The translations under genes were made by a program, and so were the position numbers. The notes beneath the pieces were generated by a model. It was given only the letters and a program-made list of their open reading frames with translations, ran no database searches and was not told where the DNA came from. Positions 12,370 through 17,383 of a stretch of DNA of 64,000 nt are shown piece by piece. Source of the stretch: Acidobacteriota bacterium (GTDB lineage Bacteria > Acidobacteriota > Thermoanaerobaculia > Gp7-AA8); NCBI GenBank assembly GCA_021325515.1, contig JAJPHC010000054.1, forward strand, positions 62,001 to 126,000, in the 5' to 3' direction. Numbering within the stretch: position 1 is the stretch's first letter; every line of letters begins with the position of its first letter.

Positions 12370-13207
12370 GCTCCAGCGCGTCGAACAACTGCTGAAGGGT
12401 CGTCGTCACCTCTCCGCGTCGGCTGTTGCCGACGACGCGCCCGTCGATTTCGGTTACAGGCATGACGCCCTGCGTCGTGCTCGTGACGAAGGCTTCGGCG
12501 AGATGGAAGAGCTCCGCCTCGCGCAGCGGGCGCTCGTCGACACGAATGTGCGCGGCGATCGCCAGATCGATGACCCTGTCGCGCACCACGCCGGGCAGCA
12601 CATGTTCGTCGAGCGGGTGCGTGATGACGCGGCCGTCGATGACGGCGAAGAAGCTCGAGCTCGCGCCCTCGCGTACGACGCCATCCTGGATGAGGATCGC
12701 TTCATCGGCGCCTGCACGTTGCGCCTTCTTCTTCGCGATCGCATTGGCCAGCAGGTTCACCGATTTCACCTGGCACTGCTTCCAGCGCAGGTCGGGCGCC
12801 GTCATCACCTTGATGCCACGCTCCTTGCGCGCCGCGTCGGGAAAACGGTAACGGCGTGAATAGGCGATCGCGGTCGGCTGGAGATTCTCCCCCCAGAAGT
12901 GCGCGCGCTCTTCCTCGCCGCGCGTGACCTGGATGTAGACGATGCCGTCGCCGAACTCCGTGCGCTCGAGGATCTCGCGCATCGTCTCGCGGAAGCTCGC
13001 CTCGTCCCGCCATGGATTGCCGATCTCGATCTCGCGCAGCCCGCGCTCCAGACGGCGATAGTGCTCGCTCAGAAATGCGGGCGCGTGTTCGGTGAACTTG
13101 AACACTTCATAGACTGCGTCTCCGAACTGAAAGCCGCGGTCCTCGACGCCGATGACGCGCTCCGCGGTCGTCGTGAAACGGCCGTTGCACCAGAGAACGT
13201 CAGGCAT
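12329..13207 (-). CDS. Class IV PLP aminotransferase (D-amino acid aminotransferase-like)
   Basis: 292 residues of fold-type IV, the family of D-amino acid aminotransferase, branched-chain aminotransferase and aminodeoxychorismate lyase. The PLP lysine is Lys148 in QVKSVNLLANAIAKKKA; the phosphate-binding VVREGASSSFF and STTQGVMPV loops are present. The N-terminus (WCNGRFTTTAERVIGVEDRGFQFGDAVYEVFK) matches Dat-like enzymes, which would supply D-Ala/D-Glu for peptidoglycan. Its ATG lies inside the end of the SpoIIE-type phosphatase gene (8-bp overlap), so the two are translationally coupled. Confidence 0.88.
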   Translation of the reverse strand: MPDVLWCNGRFTTTAERVIGVEDRGFQFGDAVYEVFKFTEHAPAFLSEHYRRLERGLREIEIGNPWRDEASFRETMREILERTEFGDGIVYIQVTRGEEERAHFWGENLQPTAIAYSRRYRFPDAARKERGIKVMTAPDLRWKQCQVKSVNLLANAIAKKKAQRAGADEAILIQDGVVREGASSSFFAVIDGRVITHPLDEHVLPGVVRDRVIDLAIAAHIRVDERPLREAELFHLAEAFVTSTTQGVMPVTEIDGRVVGNSRRGEVTTTLQQLFDALELNARGFAGSVRSS

Positions 13208-14399
13208 TCGCGGTGGCCTTCACGATGACGACCGTGCGGTCGTCCTCGCCCTCTCTCCCCCACTTCGCGACTTTCGCCAGCACTTCCTGCGCGATCTCCT
13301 GCGCCGAGCGCGTGCGGTTCTGCTTGACGATGCGCTGCAGCCGGTCGAGGCCGAATTCGCGATCGTGGCTGTCATGCGCCTCGACGATGCCGTCCGAATA
13401 GAGACAGAGCAGATCGCCCGGATCGAGCTTCGCGAAGCCGCGCGTGTACGTCGCGTCGGGAGTCGGCCCGAGGACGGGACCGCCGTTCTTCAACAGCTCG
13501 ATCTGATTTCCCTTCAGCAGGAAGGGATAGTTGTGGCCGGCGTTGGAGTAAATCAGGATGCCGCCGGTCTCGAGCTCGCCGTAGAAGAGCGAGACGAACT
13601 TCGTGGTGAGGCGGCTGCGATGGATGATGTGATTCAGTTTCTCCATCGTCCGCACGATCTTGAAGTCGCGGTCGGTCGCCATGCGCAGGCCCATGTAGAT
13701 GTCGCGCACGACGAGTGCCGCGGGCAGGCCATGGCCCGAGCCGTCCGCAATCGCGAGACCGAGAATCGATTCGGAGATCGGGATGAAATCGTAGAAGTCG
13801 CCGCTGACGATTTCCGCCGGCACGGTACGGCCCCAGATGTCGAAGCCGGAGTACTGCGGCACGCGCGAGGGAAGGATCGACTGCTGGATGCGCTGCGCCT
13901 CGACGATCAGCGATTCGAACCGCTCGGCGCGAAGCCGCTGATTGACCGTATAGCGAATCAGGTTGAGCGAAAAGAGAATCGCTTCGCGCCCGAGATCGGG
14001 AGCGACGTCGAATGCCAGGATGTAGTTGTCGTCGCCGGCGGAAATGGCTGCGAATCGCCGGGCGCCGAGACGATGCTCGAGCACGGGATCGATGCCGGGA
14101 TCGTCGCCGTCCATGACGATGATCCCGTTCTCGATGACCAGCTCCACCGGCTTGTAGTCCCTGGCGACGGTGATCCCCAGCGATGCATTGCGATGCGACT
14201 CGCCGAAGCGGGCCACGAGGACATAGCAATTGTCCTCTGCTGCATATTCGTAAATGCGGCCGCCGGTGATCCCCAGCTCATCGCGAAAGTTGAGCGCGAT
14301 CGTCTCGGCAATCGAAGCGATGGTGAAGCGCGTGGTCTCGGCAGACTCGATCTGCTCGAGCGTGCGTTCGACCTTGGTGAGTAATCGTTTGTAATCCAT
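13200..14399 (-). CDS. PP2C/SpoIIE family serine phosphatase with N-terminal sensor domain
   Basis: 399 residues. The first ~150 resemble a GAF-like sensor, followed by a short helix (RAERFESLIVEAQRIQQSILPSR) and a SpoIIE/RsbU-type PPM phosphatase domain. Metal ligands are in EIVSGDFYDFI and IADGSGHGLPAAL; C-terminal blocks include YSNAGHNYPFLL, YSDGIVEAHD and EDDRTVVIVK. These enzymes usually dephosphorylate anti-anti-sigma (STAS) proteins in partner-switching stress pathways; no STAS or RsbW gene is nearby. First gene of a two-gene operon with the class IV aminotransferase. Confidence 0.92.
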   Translation of the reverse strand: MDYKRLLTKVERTLEQIESAETTRFTIASIAETIALNFRDELGITGGRIYEYAAEDNCYVLVARFGESHRNASLGITVARDYKPVELVIENGIIVMDGDDPGIDPVLEHRLGARRFAAISAGDDNYILAFDVAPDLGREAILFSLNLIRYTVNQRLRAERFESLIVEAQRIQQSILPSRVPQYSGFDIWGRTVPAEIVSGDFYDFIPISESILGLAIADGSGHGLPAALVVRDIYMGLRMATDRDFKIVRTMEKLNHIIHRSRLTTKFVSLFYGELETGGILIYSNAGHNYPFLLKGNQIELLKNGGPVLGPTPDATYTRGFAKLDPGDLLCLYSDGIVEAHDSHDREFGLDRLQRIVKQNRTRSAQEIAQEVLAKVAKWGREGEDDRTVVIVKATANA

Positions 14400-14435: not shown

Positions 14436-14687
14436 CTACTTCTTCTCGCGTTGAGCGCGGAGGAGGTCAACGCGCGCCTGCTCGTAGCGGTCTTTGAAGG
14501 CGTTCATCTCTTCGATCGAGCGGAACTTGTGGACACCTTTCGGGATCGCCAGCGGCGGCGTGATGCCGCCGGCGAGCTTGTAAATCGCGAAGATGCGGCC
14601 TGCCCGCTCCTCCGGATTCGCACCTTTCCAGCGCTGACGATCGAACTCGTTCATTTCTTCGATCGTTCGAAATTTTCGAACCGGCAT
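14436..14687 (-). CDS. Small protein with duplicated FR(T/S)IEEMN motif
   Basis: 83 residues, charged, without signal or membrane segment. It contains an internal repeat: KFRTIEEMNEFDR near residue 5 and KFRSIEEMNAFKDR near residue 54, suggesting duplication of a short helical unit. Family unknown to me. It follows the nucleotidyltransferase gene by 12 bp on the same strand and is the last gene of that operon. The pairing resembles a toxin-antitoxin layout, but that is only an inference. Confidence 0.7.
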   Translation of the reverse strand: MPVRKFRTIEEMNEFDRQRWKGANPEERAGRIFAIYKLAGGITPPLAIPKGVHKFRSIEEMNAFKDRYEQARVDLLRAQREKK

Positions 14688-14699
14688 CGCTAGTGCTCT

Positions 14700-15170
14700 C
14701 TACTCCTTCAGATCGTACATCTCGCGCAATGCGTGGGCGTCGAGCTTGTCCTTGTAACGAACCGTGTTCTTCTTCATCTCGTACAGAGCCTGCGGGGTCA
14801 CAACGCGAACCGGCACGCCCTTGATTTCGAGAGTTTGTGAGGGAAGCTCTGCATACGCAAACGCTTCGCCCAGTCTGGAAACGATGTCGATCCAGTAGCC
14901 AACGTCCGGAGGGTTGTAATTCACGCTCGGGTAGTCGCCGATCAGGTCGTCATCCCGGATTTCATCGATATTCGGATCGTCCCAGATCGAACGCAACGCA
15001 CGCTTGATGCGCGCAACGTTCTCGGGTGAAGGAGCCACAAAAAAATCGACGTCTTCCGTGCTGCGGCCGAGACCGTGAAAGTTCACTGCGATTCCGCCAA
15101 AGATCTTGTAATCGACGCCCTCCCGATTGAATGCAGCGACGATCTCGAGAACCTTGTACGGGTCGATCAT
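14700..15170 (-). CDS. Nucleotidyltransferase-fold protein (DUF6036/AbiEii-like)
   Basis: 156 residues with a minimal nucleotidyltransferase signature: FGGIAVNFHGLGRSTEDVDFFV, with the Gly-Gly at 25-26 and the metal-binding Asp40 and Asp42. The remainder has ADP/NMP-transferase-like features such as GYWIDIVSRLGEAF and VRVVTPQALYEMKK, then KDKLDAHALREM. Related proteins include AbiEii/MenT-type toxins and uncharacterised NTases. Its ATG directly follows the stop codon of the phosphodiesterase gene with no gap, so translation is probably coupled. Confidence 0.82.
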   Translation of the reverse strand: MIDPYKVLEIVAAFNREGVDYKIFGGIAVNFHGLGRSTEDVDFFVAPSPENVARIKRALRSIWDDPNIDEIRDDDLIGDYPSVNYNPPDVGYWIDIVSRLGEAFAYAELPSQTLEIKGVPVRVVTPQALYEMKKNTVRYKDKLDAHALREMYDLKE

Positions 15171-17288
15171 CTATTTCAATTCTACGCCGTCCAACTCATA
15201 CGGCGGCTTCACGCCCAGCGTTCCCAGCACCGTCGGATACACGTCCGCGATGTACGGCGCGCGGTCCGTCGTCAGCTTCTTGTTCATGAAGAAGATGCCC
15301 TTCACGATCTCCGGATCGACCGAGCAGTGATCGCCGCTCCAGACCTGCTTGTTCGGCTCGAGCAGATTCTTCGGAATGCCGCCCAGCGACGTCTGCCACG
15401 AAACGCGATAGCCGTCGTTGTTCGTCACGAAGAGATCGGGGATCATGTTCGGGTCGAACTGCTTGTAGACCTCTTCGCGCGCGATGACACGCCGCACGGG
15501 ATGCTCGCCGGTCTCCGGATCGGTGAACTGCACCAGCCGCTCCTTCAACTCCTTCTTCAGCGCCTCGGCTTCCGGCCCCGGATTGACGATGCCCTGCGCC
15601 TCGCGCCCCTTCGTGTTGATGTAGAGCTCCCCCAGTCCCATCGCATACGCGCGCGTCTTCGACCAGTCGACGTTCTCCCAGAACTGCCCCTGATCGAAGA
15701 GCATCTCGACGTTGCGCTCCTTCACCTGCACGCCGCTCTTCAGCACCATGTAGCCGTTCATCACCAGCCACGTGTCGTAGTTCACCGACTTGCGGAATGA
15801 TGCGAATCCGTGATCGCTGAGCACGATGAGCGTCGCGTTGTGCTTCTCCGCCGCCGCCATCGCGTCGCCGACGATGCCGTCCATCAACTGATACGCGCGC
15901 AGGAGTGCATCGCTCCATTTCGCCGCCAGCGCCGCGTCATACGCGGGATGCTGCGGATCCATGAGCCGCCAGAACACGTGGCCCACGCGATCCGGAAACT
16001 CGAAGCACTGCACCATCAGATCCTTGTCGCCCGCGAGGAACGAATCGAACATCTTCCTGTTCTGCGCGACTGTGAAATTCATGTCGTCCCAGAACATCTG
16101 CTCATCTGCAAACCCCTCGGAGATCGCCCAGGTGTCGATCTGCCATCCGAGTGTCTTGTAGAGGCCGTACTTGCCCGCGAGCTCCGGCGCCCACTTCGCC
16201 GGCGTCGAGATGCGGAAGCCGGGAGGCAGATTGCGCGGGTCGAAATTGATCGGCGAGAGATAGAGCTTGATCTCCGGCGCAATGCTGATGAGATGAAAGC
16301 GGCTCACGCCGCGCAACTTGATGAGCGGATTGAAGGGAAAGACGAAGTCCGTCCAGCCGCTCCAGTCCCCCGGCTTCATCGTCAGCTTCTGTCCGCTCTC
16401 TTCGATCGTGATCGACTGGCGATCCTGCGCGACGGTGATCGTCATCGGGATCTTGATGTACGGCGGTTCCTTGAAGAGTTTGTTCGGCGGCCCCTGGATC
16501 TCGGTCGGAATCACACCTTTGTTGTCGATGAGCTGCACCACTTCGATCGAGAACTCATTCGAGCCGCTGCGGTGGAAGTCGAGCTCCGACGTGAAGTAGA
16601 ACGGCTTCCCGACGCGGCCCGACACGTCGGGCACGCCGAGGCCGGAGAGCAGATAGCCATCATGAAAGTCGGTGGCGGGAAACGTGACCGGCACGTGCAC
16701 GACCATCGTTTTTCGGCCGGCGCTGGCCGCGACTTCCCAGAACGGGATTCCCTGACGCCGGTTGATGACCCCCGGGCGCGTCTCCGGCAGATATCGCTTC
16801 GCGCCGATGAACGCGCCCGCCGCGGCGATGATCGCGACGACGAGCACGGCTGCGCGCGCGCGGCGGAACGGGATCGCGAGCATCGCGAGAAGCACGAAGA
16901 CGAGTGCGGCCGCCGCCATCGGATTCTTTGCGCCGAGGAGGAAGGGCTCCTTCGTCTCATCGAAGGCGGCGAAGACCGGCAGGTAGTTCTTCGGATCGCG
17001 CCGAAGAAAATCGAAGATGCCGGTGCGGCCCGGATCAATTCCGGTCGAGAAGGTCGACCAGGAGACCGGCGTCTGCGCCGGCGTCGTCGGCAGCAGCGGG
17101 CGGAACGTGCCGTTCGCACGGAGCCGCGCCATGTTCGGCAGCTTTCCTTCGTCCATCCACTTCTGCGTGTAGCGCGCGTCGACGCCGTCAAAGCCGAGGA
17201 CGATGACTTTCTGCTGCGCGGCGGAAAGCGACAGCGTCAACGAGAGGAGCAAAGCCGTTGAGAACAAACGGATAGCGGGCGGACACAT
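15171..17288 (-). CDS. Exported/membrane alkaline-phosphatase-superfamily phosphodiesterase
   Basis: 705 residues of the type I phosphodiesterase/nucleotide pyrophosphatase family. A signal peptide is followed by the first metal motif GFDGVDARYTQKW (Asp about 34), the nucleophile region TPAQTPVSWSTFSTG, and C-terminal VLSDHGFASF. Two hydrophobic helices at about 123-165 interrupt the catalytic region and may anchor it in the membrane. Known relatives hydrolyse nucleotide sugars, phospholipids or transfer lipid head groups; substrate not evident. A TATGAT hexamer lies 8 nt before the ATG, without a Shine-Dalgarno. First gene of a three-gene operon. Confidence 0.9.
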   Translation of the reverse strand: MCPPAIRLFSTALLLSLTLSLSAAQQKVIVLGFDGVDARYTQKWMDEGKLPNMARLRANGTFRPLLPTTPAQTPVSWSTFSTGIDPGRTGIFDFLRRDPKNYLPVFAAFDETKEPFLLGAKNPMAAAALVFVLLAMLAIPFRRARAAVLVVAIIAAAGAFIGAKRYLPETRPGVINRRQGIPFWEVAASAGRKTMVVHVPVTFPATDFHDGYLLSGLGVPDVSGRVGKPFYFTSELDFHRSGSNEFSIEVVQLIDNKGVIPTEIQGPPNKLFKEPPYIKIPMTITVAQDRQSITIEESGQKLTMKPGDWSGWTDFVFPFNPLIKLRGVSRFHLISIAPEIKLYLSPINFDPRNLPPGFRISTPAKWAPELAGKYGLYKTLGWQIDTWAISEGFADEQMFWDDMNFTVAQNRKMFDSFLAGDKDLMVQCFEFPDRVGHVFWRLMDPQHPAYDAALAAKWSDALLRAYQLMDGIVGDAMAAAEKHNATLIVLSDHGFASFRKSVNYDTWLVMNGYMVLKSGVQVKERNVEMLFDQGQFWENVDWSKTRAYAMGLGELYINTKGREAQGIVNPGPEAEALKKELKERLVQFTDPETGEHPVRRVIAREEVYKQFDPNMIPDLFVTNNDGYRVSWQTSLGGIPKNLLEPNKQVWSGDHCSVDPEIVKGIFFMNKKLTTDRAPYIADVYPTVLGTLGVKPPYELDGVELK

Positions 17289-17302: not shown

Positions 17303-17311
17303 CTTGTAACC

Positions 17312-17365
17312 AGTGCTGAGTACTGAGTGCCGAGTGCTGAGTACTGAGTGCTGAGCTGAGTACCG
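17312..17365. repeat. Tandem GTRCTGA heptamer repeat
   Basis: Eight consecutive degenerate heptamers (GTGCTGA, GTACTGA, GTGCCGA and so on, one shortened to GCTGA) fill the space between divergent genes. The same heptamer appears four times direct and four times inverted at 56699-56766. Confidence 0.75.
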
Positions 17366-17383
17366 AGTGATCGTGAGGAATTG

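What the first reader, a model, noticed from the sequence alone, without database searches (positions are those of the whole stretch)
14436..17288. Nucleotidyltransferase plus repeat-motif mini-protein downstream of a phosphodiesterase
The NTase ATG directly follows the phosphodiesterase TAG, and the 83-residue partner follows 12 bp later. The partner contains two copies of KFR(T/S)IEEMN. AbiEii/MenT-type NTases act as toxins with small antitoxins, but here the toxin-like gene is first and sits in a metabolic operon. It may be a new NTase-partner pair.
Basis: partly seen in the sequence, partly recalled or inferred. Interest (0 to 1): 0.5.

Follow-up and report, generated by a model that had tools for sequence, protein, structure and literature searches.

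The report
Nucleotidyltransferase with duplicated-motif small partner
A small enzyme of a kind that other bacteria use as a growth-stopping toxin is followed by a tiny protein carrying the same nine-residue motif twice, and the two genes stay together across a bacterial phylum, so they probably form a toxin-antitoxin pair with a partner type that no library searched here names.

Summary
The 156-aa NTase (15170-14700, minus) starts right after the phosphodiesterase TAG; the 83-aa partner (14687-14436) starts 12 bp later and carries KFRTIEEMN and KFRSIEEMN.

The pairing is real. In 297 Acidobacteriota genomes, 26 of 27 close NTase homologues have the partner directly downstream on the same strand; the 27th lies at a contig end. 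Three Planctomycetota loci also have it. The repeat is a family trait (36 of 39 partners beyond chance). The partner matches nothing in Pfam, NCBIfam, PADLOC or PHROGs.

The NTase keeps the AbiEii/MenT active-site residues, almost invariant in 31 copies, and models onto MenT1 (Z 13.4). Broken NTases beside intact partners outnumber the reverse 8 to 1, which hints that the NTase is the toxin but is not significant alone.

The 'metabolic operon' is incidental: the pair sits at the PDE-SpoIIE junction in only 5 of 14 family genomes that have it.

Best reading: a toxin-first, AbiEii/MenT-like toxin-antitoxin module whose small partner uses two motif copies to hold the NTase. Toxicity, binding and mechanism are untested; the complex could not be modelled.

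The parts
14700..15170 (-). NTase, 156 aa, compact AbiEii/MenT-like nucleotidyltransferase (putative toxin); residues G25, R36, T38, D40, D42, D95, K133, D141, D144
   Evidence: ORF; PF08843 26.4 bits over cut-off 22.5; residue conservation in 31 copies; model pLDDT 89.7; MenT1 Z 13.4
14436..14687 (-). Partner, 83 aa, two copies of the h-x-K-F-R-[ST]-h-E-E-[MA] motif (putative antitoxin)
   Evidence: ORF; no Pfam/NCBIfam/PADLOC/PHROGs family; pairing; internal repeat
14649..14675 (-). motif copy 1, KFRTIEEMN (partner residues 5-13)
   Evidence: sequence
14502..14528 (-). motif copy 2, KFRSIEEMN (partner residues 54-62)
   Evidence: sequence
15171..17288 (-). upstream neighbour: type I phosphodiesterase/nucleotide pyrophosphatase-like protein, 705 aa; not part of the module
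   Evidence: PF01663; synteny
13200..14399 (-). downstream neighbour: SpoIIE-type protein phosphatase, 399 aa; not part of the module; marks the other side of the insertion site
   Evidence: PF07228; synteny

Best explanation
The two genes form a two-gene toxin-antitoxin-like module. The NTase is a compact member of the AbiEii/MenT group that, when free, would attach nucleotides to an RNA target (tRNA 3' ends in the MenT precedent) and stop growth. The partner, translated right behind it, would bind the NTase and keep it inactive, each KFR[ST]hEE motif (a short extended stretch leading into a helix) being a contact site. Shown here: genes, order, conserved pairing, duplicated motif, conserved catalytic residues, MenT1-like fold of the model. 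Inferred: enzyme activity, RNA target, toxicity, binding, and that the partner is the antitoxin and not the toxin.
For: Pairing: 26 of 27 NTases of 100 bits or more have the partner directly downstream, same strand; the 27th ends 19 bp from its contig end. Planctomycetota loci L038, L039, L040 have the same order. Active-site residues: S/T38 31 of 31, D40 30 of 31, D42 31 of 31, D95 30 of 31, K133, D141 and D144 31 of 31, which correspond to MenT1 T39, D41, K137 and D152 as read in passages of PMC10435456 and to AbiEii motifs I, II and IV in PMC3985639. Fold: MenT1 8an5 Z 13.4 over 148 residues. Decay: 8 loci have a frameshifted or truncated NTase beside an intact partner (G066, G141, G096, L040, G041, G151, G245, G022), one has the reverse (G295 C326). 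The three partners whose motif repeat has decayed (L119, L127, L130) all lack an intact NTase. At the family site the pair diverges faster than its neighbours: to the window, PDE 78-82%, SpoIIE 74-79%, NTase 48-67%, partner 32-55% identity, and it has a patchy presence.
Against: Nothing tests toxicity. The 8-to-1 decay bias is not significant by itself given that the NTase gene is about twice as long (binomial about 0.15, my arithmetic), some frameshifts may be assembly errors, and one intact NTase does sit beside a broken partner. LnuA (Z 13.4) and ANT(2'') (Z 12.0), which are antibiotic-modifying enzymes, match the fold about as well as MenT1. The residue pattern of motif III differs (R138 at K+5, AbiEii R180 at K+7). 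No match was found in phage or IMG/VR records, and only three weak NTase matches in plasmids, unlike many mobile TA systems. The partner has no recognised DNA-binding or antitoxin domain.
Confidence: 0.65

Rival explanations
1. The NTase is the protective member and the partner is the toxin: the NTase would inactivate the small protein by adding nucleotides, as MntA does to HepT in type VII modules.
For: An NTase beside a small protein is the layout of HEPN-MNT modules (passages of PMC2701414; abstract of PMC7641770, listing), and NTase-first order would suit a protective gene made first.
Against: No member of the partner alignment hits a HEPN or any other Pfam family (0 of 10). The NTase hits AbiEii and not a minimal-NTase family. 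Intact orphan partners exist while orphan intact NTases of this group were not seen except one beside a broken partner, the opposite of what this rival predicts.
Confidence: 0.12
2. The NTase is a house-keeping or small-molecule enzyme (for example LnuA/ANT(2'')-like) and the partner is its obligate subunit or activator; no toxicity is involved.
For: Fold matches to LnuA Z 13.4, ANT(2'') Z 12.0 and TM1012 Z 13.6; strong purifying selection on both genes; chromosomal location without phage or plasmid carriers.
Against: Patchy presence inside one family with repeated loss, fast divergence, partner retained after NTase decay, and PF08843 with the AbiEii motif II and DxxD pattern. The known antibiotic NTases work without such a partner (recalled).
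Confidence: 0.18
3. The pair is functionally tied to the phosphodiesterase and SpoIIE phosphatase as a regulated metabolic operon.
For: In five genomes of the family (G000, G007, G011, G014, G017) PDE, NTase and partner are contiguous and SpoIIE follows (after an extra PF05635 gene in G011), and their NTases form one clade (97/94). A Planctomycetota locus, L039, also has PDE homologues 0.3 kb from its pair, but downstream.
Against: Nine of 14 genomes with the PDE-SpoIIE junction lack the pair. Besides L039 and a remote 29% SpoIIE-domain match in L109, none of the other 38 loci searched outside the five site loci and L037 (the same contig stretch as L097) has PDE or SpoIIE nearby.
Confidence: 0.05

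Closest known systems
MenAT1 (MenT1 toxin with MenA1 antitoxin, Mycobacterium tuberculosis)
   Same: NTase fold (Z 13.4); S/T-x-D active-site stretch with the Thr that is auto-phosphorylated in MenT1; small partner (83 aa; MenA1 68 aa) with no recognised DNA-binding domain (passages of PMC10435456 and PMC11375011)
   Different: MenA1 lies upstream of MenT1, the partner here lies downstream; MenA1 is not found by the partner profile in PDB sequences at E <= 10; a duplicated motif instead of one bridging helix; NTase 156 aa against 196 aa for the MenT1 chain
AbiE (AbiEi/AbiEii, type IV toxin-antitoxin, DUF1814/COG2253)
   Same: PF08843 profile; hG[G/S], R-x3-DhD and DxxD residues (passages of PMC3985639)
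   Different: AbiEi is a two-domain DNA-binding antitoxin; here a small protein without a Pfam family encoded after the NTase; motif III spacing differs
DUF2204 / DUF6036 nucleotidyltransferases (Pfam, function unknown)
   Same: 5 and 3 of 8 NTase homologues match these profiles at E <= 0.1
   Different: AbiEii is the best and commonest match (8 of 8); no function or partner known to me for these families; a search for DUF6036 with nucleotidyltransferase found 0 papers
HEPN-MNT (type VII toxin-antitoxin)
   Same: NTase beside a small protein
   Different: no MNT or HEPN profile match

Membership tests
AbiEii/DUF1814 NTase (PF08843) | profile score above Pfam cut-off | tested here: met
   26.4 bits against 22.5 for the window protein; 8 of 8 homologues match at E <= 0.1
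AbiEii/DUF1814 NTase (PF08843) | motifs I and II, hG[G/S] ... R-x3-DhD | tested here: met
   G25 31/31, R36 31/31, D40 30/31, D42 31/31; definition from passages of PMC3985639
AbiEii/DUF1814 NTase (PF08843) | motif III, Lys with a following Arg (K173, R180 in AbiEii) | tested here: inconclusive
   K133 31/31 and R138 31/31, but spacing +5 instead of +7
AbiEii/DUF1814 NTase (PF08843) | motif IV, +DxxD | tested here: met
   D141 and D144 31/31; K140 in the window protein; the positive charge was not counted in the other copies
AbiE type IV system | AbiEi/COG5340 DNA-binding antitoxin gene next to the NTase | tested here: not met
   partner is 83 aa, downstream, no Pfam match in 10 of 10 members
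MenAT1 | MenT fold with phosphoacceptor S/T two residues before the first Asp of DxD | tested here: met
   8an5 Z 13.4, 148 residues, 3.4 A; S/T38 in 31/31
MenAT1 | MenA1-type antitoxin encoded upstream | tested here: not met
   order reversed in 26 of 27; no PDB sequence match to MenA1
MenAT1 | toxicity by nucleotide addition to tRNA, neutralised by the partner | not testable with these tools
   needs expression and transfer assays
HEPN-MNT type VII | HEPN-domain partner and minimal-NTase profile | tested here: not met
   no such Pfam hit at E <= 1 for NTase or partner
LnuA/ANT(2'') antibiotic NTases | fold | tested here: met
   LnuA Z 13.4, ANT(2'') Z 12.0
LnuA/ANT(2'') antibiotic NTases | substrate activity on lincosamides or aminoglycosides | not testable with these tools
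   needs an enzyme assay

The most novel reading that the evidence does not exclude
The partner is a bivalent antitoxin: the two copies of one short linear motif each grip an NTase protomer, so that one 60-90-residue protein clamps two enzymes, possibly provoking auto-phosphorylation of T38 as MenA1 does to MenT1 T39. A related NTase branch with an upstream partner carrying a single copy (loci L135, L136) would be the one-site form.
Probability: 0.3. Interest if true: 0.6.

Novelty: new variant of a known kind. Interest (0 to 1): 0.47.

Why it matters
If it works as proposed, it adds a partner family, not named in any library searched here, to the AbiEii/MenT toxins. It would show a toxin-first gene order for them and offer a very small antitoxin with a clear, testable valency. 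MenA antitoxins are known to be diverse, with one proposed common mechanism (passages of PMC11375011); a duplicated-motif antitoxin would be a clean test of it. It also shows how such a module can sit inside, and repeatedly vanish from, a stable chromosomal operon.

Tried and rejected
Metabolic-operon reading: rejected as a general explanation, because only 5 of 14 PDE-SpoIIE junctions hold the pair. HEPN-MNT: no profile support. Phage or plasmid carriage: no relative in IMG/VR with either profile, no phage match, no plasmid match for the partner, three weak plasmid matches for the NTase (28.9% over 94% of the query in Azospira; 47% over 33% in two Acidisarcina records), not followed up.

Complex model: the NTase TAG was read as Gln to give the in-frame NTase-partner read-through for folding. 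The NTase part folded, the partner part stayed at pLDDT 33-63 and no contact can be read from it. Alignments A5, A6, A7 and A10 placed partner rows wrongly and were not used. A2 used the wrong strand for two rows and was replaced by A3.

PDB sequence searches gave no significant match: NTase best E 0.012, an unrelated oxidoreductase; NTase profile best E 0.26, with MenT1 8an4 at 0.34; partner profile best 0.6. A G008 ORF at the same junction (69 aa, one motif-like stretch) has no clear relative among 18 family genomes (G011 0.04 only) and is left unexplained. Literature: searches showed no paper on this pair; PMC10435456 was read as outline, abstract and passages, PMC11375011, PMC3985639 and PMC2701414 as passages, the rest as search listings only.

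Rows dropped: the repeat test used 39 partners and left out L120 (broken), L132 (two motifs, remote NTase), L133 and L134 (first motif missing or at a contig edge), L135 and L136 (single-motif type). Orphan partners G045 and G260 were not examined. One search lists G141's frameshifted NTase as two rows, one in each score class. The decay binomial (about 0.15) and the Fisher value for decayed motifs (3 of 10 against 0 of 29, about 0.01; two of the three share a genus) are my own arithmetic, not from a call. The profiles A1 and A3 were built from loci found beside each other (one A3 row, L036, is an orphan), but the two phylum searches were run independently.

Full report
What is there. The window lies in an acidobacteriote genome, G000:C11; a close family relative is a Thermoanaerobaculia MAG (L037). 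On the minus strand a 705-aa phosphodiesterase (17288-15171, PF01663) is followed without a gap by a 156-aa NTase (15170-14700), then after 12 bp by an 83-aa protein (14687-14436), then by a 399-aa SpoIIE-type phosphatase (14399-13200, PF07228). The small protein holds KFRTIEEMN and KFRSIEEMN.

The NTase. It matches AbiEii (PF08843) at 26.4 bits against a cut-off of 22.5; DUF2204 is second and below its cut-off. Among 8 close homologues all 8 match AbiEii, 5 DUF2204 and 3 DUF6036 at E <= 0.1. NCBIfam, PADLOC and PHROGs give nothing relevant. A four-sequence alignment gave a model with mean pLDDT 89.7. Foldseek and VIA-align place it with TM1012 (Z 13.6), MenT1 (13.4), LnuA (13.4), ANT(2'') (12.0) and MenT3 (10.3). 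In 31 intact copies the residues that correspond to the catalytic set of MenT1 (T39, D41, K137, D152; PMC10435456, passages) and AbiEii (PMC3985639, passages) are almost fixed: S/T38 31, D40 30, D42 31, D95 30, K133 31, D141 31, D144 31. So an active NTase is very likely; what it modifies is not known.

The partner. It has no family in Pfam, NCBIfam, PADLOC or PHROGs and no sequence match in the PDB (best E 0.6). A profile of ten homologues finds 42 places in 38 of 297 Acidobacteriota genomes. The consensus is [VIL]-x-K-F-R-S-[VIL]-E-E-[MA] near the N terminus and, after about 45 residues, G-V-x-[KR]-[FY]-R-[ST]-[IL]-E-E-[AM]; in 36 of 39 proteins the second copy matches the first beyond shuffles at p <= 0.05. 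The three failures (L119, L127, L130) all lie where the NTase is broken or gone. The low-confidence fold suggests that each motif leads into a helix.

Pairing. The NTase profile, searched independently in the same 297 genomes, gives 49 places at E <= 1e-15. Of the 27 with 100 bits or more, 26 have a partner within 105 bp downstream on the same strand; the remaining one (G083:C119:20-409, minus) has only 19 bp of contig on that side. Of the 22 weaker places 5 have one near, two of them upstream partners of a single-motif type (G016, G132 C7) and one a fragment of the frameshifted G141 gene. In the own family all six NTases with E <= 5.3e-43 have the partner (one, in G006, fell below the threshold but is visible as an ORF). 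Outside the phylum, of the five genome-contig loci one is the family relative L037, three are Planctomycetota loci with the partner, and L041 holds only an NTase fragment without it.

Orphans and decay. Of 42 partner places, 31 lie within 500 bp of an NTase place. Of the other 11, four (G041, G151, G245, G022) abut short NTase remnants, G129 has a distant NTase half a kilobase downstream, G053 lies at a contig edge, G004, G138 and G199 show none, and G045 and G260 were not examined. Frameshifted NTases with intact partners occur in G066, G141, G096 and L040; a frameshifted partner with an intact NTase occurs once, in G295 C326, a genome with a second, intact pair. Eight to one points to the NTase as the costly member, but the NTase gene is about twice as long, so the bias is not significant alone and some frameshifts may be assembly errors. 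Both genes are under purifying selection (dN/dS 0.08-0.32 where dS is not saturated).

The site. The SpoIIE gene was found in 16 of 18 family genomes. In 14 the PDE lies upstream of it in the same direction; G004 and G005 differ. The pair fills the junction in 5 (G000, G007, G011, G014, G017) and is missing in 9, where the gap is 7-165 bp (six genomes), holds a 69-aa ORF (G008), or is 456-470 bp (G009, G013). The five NTases form one clade (97/94), but the five genomes are scattered on the SpoIIE tree, which needs five changes by its best topology and at least two by well-supported branches. One ancestral arrival followed by repeated loss fits best; exchange of the site between lineages is not excluded. 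The pair diverges faster than its neighbours. Away from the family no locus has this context, apart from L039, where PDE homologues lie on the other side of the pair, and a remote 29% SpoIIE-domain match in L109. The operon is therefore a place, not an explanation.

Mechanism. The most likely reading is a toxin-antitoxin module of the AbiEii/MenT kind in reversed order (0.65). Steps shown: pair, order, conservation, active-site residues, fold, duplicated motif. Steps inferred: toxicity, RNA target, neutralisation by binding, and valency. MenA1, a 68-aa antitoxin, bridges two MenT1 protomers and can provoke phosphorylation of T39 (PMC10435456 and PMC11375011, passages). The equivalent S/T38 is kept in 31 of 31 here, and two motif copies would be a natural way to bridge two NTases; this is the bold reading (0.3). 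Rivals are an NTase that protects against the partner (0.12) and a non-toxic enzyme with a subunit (0.18).

Known or new. It is not MenAT1 or AbiE by the tested features: the partner is unrelated in sequence, follows the NTase, and lacks the AbiEi domains. The literature searches showed no description of it. I file it as a new variant of a known kind.

Noticed in passing
L009-L031, for example L011, L013, L014, L017, L019, L023, L031: Many more distant NTases of the same family genomes have a different 58-95-aa ORF just upstream, overlapping the NTase start, often with a T-P-x-E-R-L stretch. Two of these small ORFs (L011, L017) have no Pfam match above cut-off. They look like antitoxin-first pairs; not counted systematically.
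   Followed up: partly
G008:C155 (L148/L153), PDE-SpoIIE junction: A 69-aa ORF overlaps the PDE stop where relatives have the NTase pair; it has one motif-like stretch (GVYKYHSYLEM) and no NTase; no clear relative in 18 family genomes.
   Followed up: partly
PDE-SpoIIE junction of G011, G013, G009 (L139, L143, L144): The same junction has also taken up a four-helix-bundle gene (23S_rRNA_IVP, PF05635, identified in G011; alike by eye in G013 and G009), bordered by short repeated GGCTGTCGGC-like stretches in inverted orientation in G009.
   Followed up: partly
L039 5007-8428: A Planctomycetota pair has two phosphodiesterase homologues (31.6% and 29% to the window protein) 0.3 kb downstream; in the window the phosphodiesterase is upstream. 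Chance or a real link is open. The window phosphodiesterase has no close second copy in its own genome.
   Followed up: partly
L121 3641-4507 (G050): A 133-residue open frame carries the partner motifs plus a C-terminal part with an L-T-P-E-Q-R-L stretch, between an upstream intact NTase and a downstream second NTase match; it may join two partner types. No Pfam match.
   Followed up: no
G105 C107 2454-3501 (L103): Two partner genes flank one NTase: one divergent upstream on the other strand, one downstream on the same strand.
   Followed up: no
window 17310-17370: A run of short GTGCTGAGTACTGAGT-like repeats lies between the phosphodiesterase and the divergent solute-binding-protein-like gene.
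   Followed up: no
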